Assembly: GCA_004356615.1 (NCBI GenBank)
Contig: SMWT01000040.1
Location: 1-32,268, forward strand
Direction of reading: 5' to 3'
Length of the DNA: 32,268 nucleotides
Origin: Deltaproteobacteria bacterium
Lineage (GTDB): Bacteria; Bdellovibrionota; Bacteriovoracia; Bacteriovoracales; Bacteriovoracaceae
Shown here: positions 23,956-26,559 of the stretch, piece after piece
How positions within the stretch are numbered: the stretch's first letter is position 1
Layout: each line of letters begins with the position of its first letter
Made by a program: the position numbers and the translations under genes
The notes under the pieces: generated by a model
Seen by the model: the letters and a program-made list of their open reading frames with translations, nothing else
Databases searched by the model: none
Told to the model about the DNA's origin: nothing

Positions 23956-24753
23956 TTGTTTAAAAGCATGGTTTTTCTATTATCTATTTTATTTAGTGCA
24001 AATTTACTTGCTCTCCCCGAGGTAATCGAATTTTGGTTTATTTCCCGTGCCAAATACGGATTACTACAAAACTATCCGCAAACCCTCGTTAAAGTGGCCC
24101 AGGTACGAAGGATTTACCAAGGATGTCAGTCCTGGGCAGAAGGCTGCTATGATCTTGAAGATGAAACACTGGCAAATCGTCAGTCTGATTTAAAAGTAAA
24201 TAGTTATATGATTAAAAAACAGAAAAGATTACAAAATAGGTTAGACCTCTTTGAGCCTTATCAAACTCACCTTTCAGATTGTGATGCAGGTGTGGGCCAT
24301 AGCAAGTTTTGTGGCGGCCGGCTTCCTGCTAGGGTTGATAGTAGTATTGAGATTTGGATAGATACCAGCTCTAGCATGAACGAAATAGATCCTCGGGCAA
24401 GTGATGGAAGTTGTTTAAGAAAAAAGTTTATAAAAATGGTCTTGGACGGTTGCGGGGGAAAAATTCCTATTATGGGGATTTTTAATAAATCTCTTAGGGC
24501 GATGGGGGCCTTTACTGATGTCTGTCGAAGTTATGGGGAGAACGACCTCAACTACCTTGCCGATTGGATCGAGGCCTCCAAGTCAAAACATCTGGTAGTG
24601 GTGACAGACTACACCCAAATGAAGCACAAACTTAAAAAGTTTATTGACCGCTCTGGGGCAAAAGTTAGAGGCGATTTTTTCAAAGGAGCAACCTTAGAAA
24701 ATTTTATCTATTGGGGTATGGAGTTATCCAACTCCTGTGAAGATTTAACGTAA
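23956..24753 (+). CDS. Secreted protein with VWA/MIDAS-like motif
   Basis: A 265-residue exported protein. TTG 23956 is the likely start because AGGAA lies 7 nt upstream; ATG 23968 is less well placed. The signal peptide runs to about residue 20 (ILFSANLLALP). Residues 131-141 read IEIWIDTSSSM, a strand followed by the MIDAS motif D-x-S-x-S (Asp136, Ser138, Ser140) of von Willebrand factor A domains. Later HLVVVTDYTQMK resembles the fourth strand and its metal-site Asp. Several cysteines suggest disulfides. The first 120 residues are not recognised. The C-terminus (SNSCEDLT) falls at the edge of an IS605-type insertion, so the native end may have been altered slightly. The function is unknown; ligand binding outside the cytoplasm is likely. 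Confidence 0.72.
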   Translation: MFKSMVFLLSILFSANLLALPEVIEFWFISRAKYGLLQNYPQTLVKVAQVRRIYQGCQSWAEGCYDLEDETLANRQSDLKVNSYMIKKQKRLQNRLDLFEPYQTHLSDCDAGVGHSKFCGGRLPARVDSSIEIWIDTSSSMNEIDPRASDGSCLRKKFIKMVLDGCGGKIPIMGIFNKSLRAMGAFTDVCRSYGENDLNYLADWIEASKSKHLVVVTDYTQMKHKLKKFIDRSGAKVRGDFFKGATLENFIYWGMELSNSCEDLT

Positions 24754-24755
24754 TG

Positions 24756-25250
24756 TCAGAGAATTCTCCCTCTAAATCCATTTGCCCCAGGGCCATTGGG
24801 AATAGAGGGAGATGAATCGGACGCCCTTTGGCGAGAATTTCTTTTTCCTTGGTTTTCGATATAATTTTTTATTGTTTCGATATTTGCTCCTCCTGTCGTG
24901 AGCAAACAATAGGCCCTCGTCCATAAAATAGGTTTCCAGTAATAGGATTGCAGATGGCAAGAAAATTCCTTCCTTATAAGTCTACTTGAAACCGTTTTTA
25001 GATTATTTATGAACTTACTCATTTGCATGGCAGGATGGCACGTTAAAAGTAAATGAATATGATCTGCCTCTCCCCCAAATTCCACTAATTCACAGGCCCA
25101 TTTTTCACATATGGATTGGGAGATTTCTTCCAATCTAATTAAGATGGGTTTTGAAAAACACTTTTTGCGATATTTTGTCACTAACACTAAATGGTATTGA
25201 AGATTGTAAACACAATGGAAATGTGACCTAAGATTTGCTGTTTTTTTCAT
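24756..25250 (-). CDS. tnpA: IS200/IS605 TnpA, HUH Y1 transposase
   Basis: A 164-residue transposase that cuts and rejoins single-stranded DNA at the element ends. The HUH motif is HIH (64-66) in ADHIHLLL, and the catalytic tyrosine is Tyr130 in IETIKNYIENQ. The N-terminal HCVYNLQYHLVLVTKYRKK is highly typical of Y1_Tnp proteins. ATG 25250 is chosen; the track start (GTG 25259) has no extra support. About 30 residues after YIENQ are Ser/Pro/Gly-rich and coincide with the left-end hairpin, so they are probably a by-product of coding over the DNA end. Its stop is only 2 nt from the VWA gene stop. Confidence 0.93.
   Translation of the reverse strand: MKKTANLRSHFHCVYNLQYHLVLVTKYRKKCFSKPILIRLEEISQSICEKWACELVEFGGEADHIHLLLTCHPAMQMSKFINNLKTVSSRLIRKEFSCHLQSYYWKPILWTRAYCLLTTGGANIETIKNYIENQGKRNSRQRASDSSPSIPNGPGANGFRGRIL
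24765..24812. repeat. Left-end hairpin of the IS605-type element
   Basis: TCTCCCTCTA (24765-24774) pairs perfectly with TAGAGGGAGA (24803-24812), and the interior adds GCCC/GGGC. It overlaps the end of tnpA. IS200/IS605 transposases recognise subterminal hairpins on single-stranded DNA, and this is in the right place. It could also act as a transcription terminator between the VWA gene and tnpA. Confidence 0.6.
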
Positions 25251-25259
25251 TGGGGCCAC

Positions 25260-25289
25260 TTGACACTAACCTTTGTAATAGATCATAGT
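25260..25289 (+). promoter_or_regulatory. Possible tnpB promoter giving a leaderless mRNA
   Basis: A perfect TTGACA (25260-25265), an 18-nt spacer and CATAGT (25284-25289, four of six consensus bases). Transcription would begin near 25296, exactly at the GTG proposed as the tnpB start. It also lies only 10 nt from the tnpA ATG on the other strand. Confidence 0.4.
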
Positions 25290-25295
25290 TTTATA

Positions 25296-26507
25296 GTGGA
25301 AAAATGGCGCCAAGGAAATAAATTCCGACTAAGTTTGACTAAAAAACAAAAGGTAATTCTTTTGAGGTGGATAGGTTCTTGTCGGTTTGTTTATAATTGT
25401 GGCATGGAACATCGAGTAACTTGTTACAACAGACAATATCCAAAAAGCGTTTTCTATTTTGAGCAACAAAACGCCTTGCCGGAAATCAAAAAAGACCCCG
25501 ACTTTGACTGGCTAAGAGATGTGCCTTCACAGTCTTTGCAACTTGCCCTTAGAAATCTAGATATTGCCTTTGGGAGATTTTTCAAGGGGATTGGAAAATT
25601 TCCAAAAAGAAAGAAAAAAGGTCACGGTAATGTCACTTTCCCCCAAGGGGATAAGCTTATCCCTGTTCCTATTTCAAATAAAAAATCGGTTGTTCAAATT
25701 CCAAAGCTAGGAAAGCTTAAATTTATTCACCACAGGAAATTAATTGGTAAAATCAAAAGTGCTACGATTTCTCTTTGTGCTGGAAAGTTTTATATCTCTT
25801 TTTTGACAGAAGAGGAAAAAGTCATTCCCCTTATGCCTCTTGATCCTAAATATGCCATTGGCATTGATATGGGCGTGAAAAAAAGTATCGCTCTATCTAA
25901 TGATAAATTTGAAAATCTTGATGTGGAAAATATTATAAAGATTGAAAAGAGGATCGAGAAACTTCAAAGAAAACTAAGCAAACAAGAAAAATTTTCAGGG
26001 AGATGGAAATATTTCCAAAAAATAATTTCCCGCCTACACTCCCAAATTGCCAATATAAGACGAGAATTTCTTCATAGAGTTTCCAGAGAACTTGCCGAAA
26101 GCCAAAGCATAGTTTGCATGGAGGACTTGAGGGTAAAAAATATGTCTAAATCGGCAAAAGGGAGCTTGCAAAACCCCGGCAAAAATGTGGCACAGAAATC
26201 CGGTCTGAATAAGTCCATACTGCGCCAAGGTTGGGGTATGTTTCGGACCATGCTGGAGTACAAATGTAAAAAATTTGGCAGCACTTTGGTACTAGTAAAT
26301 CCCAAAAATACCTCAAGGGAGTGTCGAAAATGCCATTTTGTATCCAAGGAAAACCGGAAAACCCAAGAAAATTTTCTTTGTGTAAATTGTGGGCATGATG
26401 AAAATGCGGATTTGCTCGCATCAAAGAATATCAAAAGACGTGGATTAGCGTCTTTGGGCCTTGAAGAGGCCCTAGAAGCCCCCACTATAATTGCACTAGC
26501 AATTTAG
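25296..26507 (+). CDS. tnpB: TnpB, RNA-guided RuvC nuclease of the IS605 element
   Basis: TnpB proteins are ancestors of Cas12: they use an omega-RNA from the element's right end to cut DNA and help keep the element. I start at GTG 25296 (403 residues), because the track's TTG 25260 coincides with a good -35 box and the family begins just before KFRL. The N-terminal domain includes RWIGSCRFVYN. RuvC motifs are AIGIDMGVKKSI (Asp), VCMEDLRVKNM (Glu) and NADLLASKNI (Asp). The zinc finger CRKC...CVNC lies between RuvC II and III. All catalytic positions are present, so activity is plausible. The gene lacks the GGCC that its neighbours are full of. The last codons form the right-end hairpin. Confidence 0.92.
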   Translation: MEKWRQGNKFRLSLTKKQKVILLRWIGSCRFVYNCGMEHRVTCYNRQYPKSVFYFEQQNALPEIKKDPDFDWLRDVPSQSLQLALRNLDIAFGRFFKGIGKFPKRKKKGHGNVTFPQGDKLIPVPISNKKSVVQIPKLGKLKFIHHRKLIGKIKSATISLCAGKFYISFLTEEEKVIPLMPLDPKYAIGIDMGVKKSIALSNDKFENLDVENIIKIEKRIEKLQRKLSKQEKFSGRWKYFQKIISRLHSQIANIRREFLHRVSRELAESQSIVCMEDLRVKNMSKSAKGSLQNPGKNVAQKSGLNKSILRQGWGMFRTMLEYKCKKFGSTLVLVNPKNTSRECRKCHFVSKENRKTQENFLCVNCGHDENADLLASKNIKRRGLASLGLEEALEAPTIIALAI

Positions 26508-26514
26508 TGGTGGG
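26479..26514 (+). ncRNA. Right-end hairpin, probable 3' part of the TnpB omega-RNA
   Basis: A nearly perfect stem spans the tnpB stop codon. CCC+CCACTA (26479-26487) pairs with TAGTGG+GGG (26505-26514, one bulged T), and inside it AATTGC (26489-26494) pairs with GCAATT (26499-26504) around the loop ACTA. IS605 right ends fold like this both as transposase substrate and as the scaffold of the TnpB guide RNA. The guide would then start just after GTCAC near 26524. The 5' extent of the RNA inside tnpB is not determined. Confidence 0.6.
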
Positions 26515-26559
26515 AGTAGTCACGTTTGCAAGATTAGAGCTTAGGTGTCATAAAAAAGT

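What the first reader, a model, noticed from the sequence alone, without database searches (positions are those of the whole stretch)
24750..26523. Apparently intact IS605/TnpB element with ends folded into the coding ends and a readable guide
TnpA keeps HUH and Tyr130, and TnpB keeps all three RuvC acids and the C4 zinc finger. The left hairpin overlaps the tnpA 3' end and the right hairpin includes the tnpB stop codon, so almost no non-coding DNA is left. If the right end is at GTCAC (26523), the omega-RNA guide would start GTTTGCAAGATTAGAG, and the target-adjacent motif would be TTTAAC-like from the left junction. That would direct TnpB to the empty donor site, as known for other IS605 TnpBs. 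The borders and TAM are inference.
Basis: partly seen in the sequence, partly recalled or inferred. Interest (0 to 1): 0.65.

Follow-up and report, generated by a model that had tools for sequence, protein, structure and literature searches.

The report
Ordinary IS605 transposon with RNA-guided nuclease
This is a complete single-copy IS605-type jumping gene whose exact ends could be fixed because a sister species still carries the uninterrupted site; it belongs to a well-studied kind, and the finder's borders and target motif needed a one-base correction.

Summary
Window 24749-26523 is a divergent tnpA/tnpB element of the IS605 group (IS200/IS605 family). TnpA keeps H67/H69 and Tyr133 (Tyr130 from the internal ATG). 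TnpB keeps D203, E288, D384 and C355/C358/C374/C377. A congener (G001) has the empty site, CAAGATTTAA|GTTTGCAAGATTAA. Joining TTTAA to GTTTG restores the upstream gene's ending SLQD*, shared with G001. A second member of the family (Shewanella plasmids) gives the same result. Ten of ten related left ends read TTTAA|C. Right-end guide and cleavage motifs covary (GAAG-TCAC, GAAT-TCAA), as in the IS608 rule. Three omega-RNA hairpins, two lying within tnpB codons, are supported by compensatory changes. The guide GTTTGCAAGATTAGAG matches the rebuilt donor site, as for ISDra2. Ends overlapping coding sequence are a lineage trait, not exceptional. One caveat on 'intact': TnpB has Leu386 where 20 of 23 homologues have Asn (DxNAA motif). 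This is a new member of a known kind; activity is untested.

The parts
24749..26523 (+). whole element, 1775 bp, left end to right end
   Evidence: empty site in G001, restored reading frame, second empty site for a related element
24744..24748 (+). TTTAA, insertion target kept in the left flank; predicted TAM
   Evidence: TTTAA is the TAM of SisTnpB7 (PMC11043419)
24761..24764 (+). left guide GAAT at the 5' foot of the left hairpin
   Evidence: same place in relatives; IS608 rule (PMC5934647)
24765..24812 (+). left-end hairpin, read through by the tnpA 3' end
   Evidence: DNA fold
24756..25259 (-). tnpA, Y1 HUH transposase; GTG at 25259, more likely ATG at 25250 (164 aa)
25260..26507 (+). tnpB, RNA-guided nuclease, up to 415 aa; RuvC triad and C4 zinc finger kept, Leu386 instead of Asn
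26391..26523 (+). predicted omega-RNA scaffold (5' end approximate) overlapping tnpB codons
   Evidence: four-sequence covariation
26436..26453 (+). omega-RNA helix 1, inside tnpB codons
   Evidence: 4 of 6 pairs with compensatory change
26456..26472 (+). omega-RNA helix 2, inside tnpB codons
   Evidence: 2 of 5 pairs with compensatory change
26475..26478 (+). right guide GAAG
   Evidence: covaries with the right cleavage motif across relatives
26479..26514 (+). right-end hairpin and omega-RNA helix 3, holding the tnpB stop 26505-26507
26520..26523 (+). right cleavage motif TCAC, last bases of the element
26524..26539 (+). predicted 16-nt omega-RNA guide GTTTGCAAGATTAGAG from host flank
   Evidence: first base after the right end; first 13 nt identical in the G001 empty site
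23956..24753 (+). host gene whose last codons SLQD* were replaced by T* (the stop is supplied by the element)

Best explanation
A single-copy IS605-type element inserted 3' of TTTAA at the last codons of a host gene, just upstream of mutY. TnpA should cut single-stranded DNA after TTTAA (left) and after TCAC (right). The cut sites would be read by the short DNA guides GAAT and GAAG at the foot of each hairpin, and the element excised as a circle. TnpB should bind an omega-RNA made from the 3' end of its own message. The 3' tail of that RNA, GTTTGCAAGATTAGAG, matches the donor site once the element has left, so TnpB would cut TTTAA|GTTTGCAAG and let repair copy the element back. Shown here: both frames open, the borders, the empty site, the guide-motif covariation and the RNA covariation. 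Inferred: TnpA excision, TnpB cleavage, the TAM and the retention role.
For: Empty site in a same-genus genome. SLQD* is restored only if C belongs to the element. A Shewanella empty site for a related element has the same form. TTTAA|C stands at 10 of 10 left ends. GAAG-TCAC or GAAT-TCAA covariation at right ends. Omega-RNA pairs: 97.8% of cells paired and 11 pairs with double-sided change, 0 of 500 shuffles as high. Protein families and solved relatives. Published mechanism: PMC8612924, PMC5934647, PMC11043419, PMC10278001.
Against: Only one copy exists in the assembly, so no recent transposition is shown. TnpB has Leu386 at a position that is Asn in 20 of 23 homologues, which could weaken cleavage. 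The genome is an 81.6% complete draft. The omega-RNA covariation rests on four sequences. No expression data.
Confidence: 0.9

Rival explanations
1. One reading: the target and TAM are TTTAAC, the element starts at 24750, and the congener lost one C by chance.
For: TTTAAC occurs at every left junction compared.
Against: It needs an extra one-base deletion and makes the ancestral gene read past its conserved stop. An independent Shewanella empty site also lacks the C. The left guide GAAT ends in T, fitting a motif ending in A. TAMs found in a 59-ortholog screen were at most 5 nt (PMC10278001).
Confidence: 0.04
2. The element is structurally complete but functionally dead or decaying: TnpB is impaired by Leu386 and the tnpA stop has been lost into the left end.
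For: Leu386 in the DxNAA motif; tnpA runs about 25 residues further than in most relatives; single copy; the tnpA of two relatives is broken.
Against: Both frames are open with all catalytic residues kept; a relative with an open tnpA (L091) also extends into its left end; ends, guides and RNA pairing are all intact.
Confidence: 0.25
3. TnpB is retained for another role (domesticated regulator) rather than element retention.
For: Two relatives keep tnpB with a broken tnpA.
Against: Here tnpA is open and both ends match their guides; the nuclease triad is kept; the insertion is not shared with the congener.
Confidence: 0.04

Closest known systems
IS605 of Helicobacter pylori (IS200/IS605 family)
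   Same: insertion next to TTTAA (PMC2993954, citing Kersulyte 1998); divergent tnpA/tnpB (from general knowledge)
   Different: different host phylum; sequences not compared directly here
IS608 / ISHp608
   Same: Y1 HUH TnpA (2a6m, E 2e-25); hairpin-foot DNA guides and right motif logic (GAAT-TCAA there; GAAG-TCAC here)
   Different: IS608 target is TTAC with guide AAAG; here TTTAA with guide GAAT
ISDra2 TnpB of Deinococcus radiodurans
   Same: full-length TnpB homology (8h1j, E 2e-41), RuvC triad, C4 zinc finger, omega-RNA overlapping the tnpB 3' end, guide from the right flank
   Different: TAM is TTGAT; Asn in the DxNAA motif where this TnpB has Leu
SisTnpB7 of Sulfolobus islandicus
   Same: TAM TTTAA and right end ending TTCAC with the guide starting right after (PMC11043419)
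   Different: archaeal host; no direct sequence comparison made here
Elements L068, L090 and L091 in the same phylum
   Same: TnpB about 50-56% and TnpA about 68-72% identical over the parts compared, same left ends (right end not seen in L091)
   Different: L068 and L090 have broken tnpA; L091 is cut by the contig end

Membership tests
IS200/IS605 family, IS605 group | Y1 HUH transposase with catalytic tyrosine | tested here: met
IS200/IS605 family, IS605 group | adjacent tnpB | tested here: met
IS200/IS605 family, IS605 group | subterminal hairpins and no target duplication | tested here: met
   hairpins; empty-site comparison shows no duplication
IS200/IS605 family, IS605 group | insertion 3' of a short fixed target read by the left guide | tested here: met
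   TTTAA at 10 of 10 left ends, GAAT or AAAT guide; two empty sites
IS200/IS605 family, IS605 group | single-strand excision and circle formation by TnpA | not testable with these tools
   needs an excision assay
OMEGA TnpB nucleases | split RuvC D-E-D and zinc finger | tested here: met
   D203, E288, D384 and C4
OMEGA TnpB nucleases | usual (not strictly defining) DxNAA stretch in RuvC-III | tested here: not met
   DLLAS here; Asn at this place in 20 of 23 homologues, not invariant. The catalytic Asp is kept, so this is a caveat on activity rather than a failed family definition
OMEGA TnpB nucleases | structured omega-RNA from the tnpB 3' end and right end | tested here: met
   covariation; expression not tested
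OMEGA TnpB nucleases | RNA-guided, TAM-dependent cleavage | not testable with these tools
   needs a cleavage assay

The most novel reading that the evidence does not exclude
TnpB with Leu386 in the otherwise near-universal DxNAA stretch is a working protein with altered behaviour (for example nicking or binding only), kept together with an active TnpA.
Probability: 0.08. Interest if true: 0.4.

Novelty: new member of a known kind. Interest (0 to 1): 0.22.

Why it matters
It gives base-exact borders, target motif and guide for an IS605-type element in a little-studied lineage, from natural empty sites. It also shows that an invariant first base of an element can be mistaken for the last base of its target. 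The predictions can be tested directly in E. coli.

Tried and rejected
Other copies in the same genome to fix the ends: only one tnpA and one left end were found; the two nearest TnpB pieces (54-56%) are partial and belong to a TCAA-type subgroup. The genome-contig scan gave only distant TnpBs at about 30-38% identity. The viral scan with TnpA found nothing; the viral scan with TnpB found four weak partial relatives at 25-33%. Joined-flank searches for the Acinetobacter and Vibrio elements gave no full empty site; an Acinetobacter johnsonii plasmid reads TTTAA|GAAACC but with another left side. No second perfect TTAA-plus-guide target was found in the genome, all hits having 2 mismatches. No structure prediction was run, since sequence relatives with solved structures were enough.

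Full report
What is there. The window carries two divergent genes whose start codons abut at 25259/25260. The minus-strand gene matches Y1_Tnp and the IS200/IS605 transposase model; the plus-strand gene matches the RNA-guided TnpB model, OrfB_IS605 and the Cas12f1-like TNB domain. TnpA aligns with IS608 TnpA (2a6m) and TnpB with ISDra2 TnpB (8h1j, 8bf8) along most of their length. Catalytic residues are in place: H67, H69 and Y133 in TnpA (64, 66 and 130 if it starts at its ATG); D203, E288 and D384 and four cysteines in TnpB.

Borders from an empty site. The two flanking genes were searched in relatives. In the same-genus genome G001 they are adjacent and uninterrupted. G001 reads CAAGATTTAAGTTTGCAAGATTAA; the window reads GAAGATTTAA then C24749 on the left and GTTTGCAAGATTAG from 26524 on the right. 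Joining TTTAA to GTTTG gives the C-terminus SLQD* for the host gene, identical to G001; joining TTTAAC to GTTTG shifts the frame and loses the stop. So the element is 24749-26523 and its first base is C.

Same result elsewhere. A related element on Shewanella plasmid NZ_CP051530 (L066) has left flank TTATTTAA then C, and right flank TCTCTTAC. Plasmids NC_008573 and NZ_AP025015 carry the uninterrupted TTATTTAATCTCTTAC. Of ten left ends compared (window, L061-L066, L068, L090, L091), all read TTTAA followed by C. That is why a single-sequence reader would take TTTAAC for the target.

Guide logic. In IS608 four bases at the 5' foot of each hairpin pair with the cleavage motif (PMC5934647). Here GAAT precedes the left hairpin and GAAG the right one. 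Across right ends, guides ending in G go with TCAC (window, L061, L063, L065, L068, L090, L104) and guides ending in T go with TCAA (L062, L064, L066, L067, L070, L071). The guides were picked by eye at the hairpin foot; L062 reads GATT rather than GAAT. This supports the right end at TCAC 26520-26523, and on the left it favours a motif ending in A rather than C.

Omega-RNA. Aligning 26391-26523 with L090, L104 and L068 gives three hairpins with 97.8% of cells paired and 11 pairs changed on both sides; no shuffle of 500 reaches this and slid versions fall to 53% or less. The set is only four sequences, so the statistics are supportive, not final. Two of the hairpins lie in tnpB codons and the third holds the stop codon. 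Placement of the stop in the right hairpin is also seen in several of the relatives examined, and two relatives (L090, L091) also have tnpA running into the left end. The compact overlap is thus shared by the lineage.

How it most likely works. By analogy with ISDra2 (PMC8612924), TnpB loaded with the omega-RNA would cut the donor site after excision, TTTAA plus GTTTGCAAGATTAGAG, and repair would restore the element. SisTnpB7 has the same TAM, TTTAA, and a guide starting right after UUCAC (PMC11043419). TAMs in a screen of 59 orthologs were at most five bases (PMC10278001). H. pylori IS605 inserts next to TTTAA (PMC2993954). None of these steps was tested for this element.

Caveats. TnpB has DLLASKNI where most relatives have DxNAAxNI; Asp384 is invariant in 23 of 23 sequences compared (this one included), but position 386 is Asn in 20 of 23 and Leu only here. 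The element is single-copy in an 81.6% complete draft genome. Two relatives keep an open tnpB but a broken tnpA.

Verdict. A correctly spotted, ordinary IS605-type element, with border and TAM corrected by one base.

Noticed in passing
L070 and L071 (G000 contigs C160 and C107): Two partial TnpB pieces of a second, TCAA-ending IS605-like subgroup in the same genome, each with a right-end hairpin; L071 starts at a contig edge.
   Followed up: partly
L076 1405-3171 (G023 contig C2), minus strand: A long open frame (901 aa in the genome search) ending in a TnpB-like zinc finger and RuvC-III motif, with a Cas1-looking frame beside it on the same strand; possibly a type V CRISPR effector. Judged by eye only.
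   Followed up: no
L090 and L068: Both keep an open tnpB but have stop codons in tnpA, as if tnpB outlasts tnpA in this lineage.
   Followed up: partly
L061-L067: Gammaproteobacterial and cyanobacterial elements with TnpA 53-68% identical to this one carry TnpBs only about 25-30% identical where a match was found, suggesting exchange of tnpB partners between elements.
   Followed up: no
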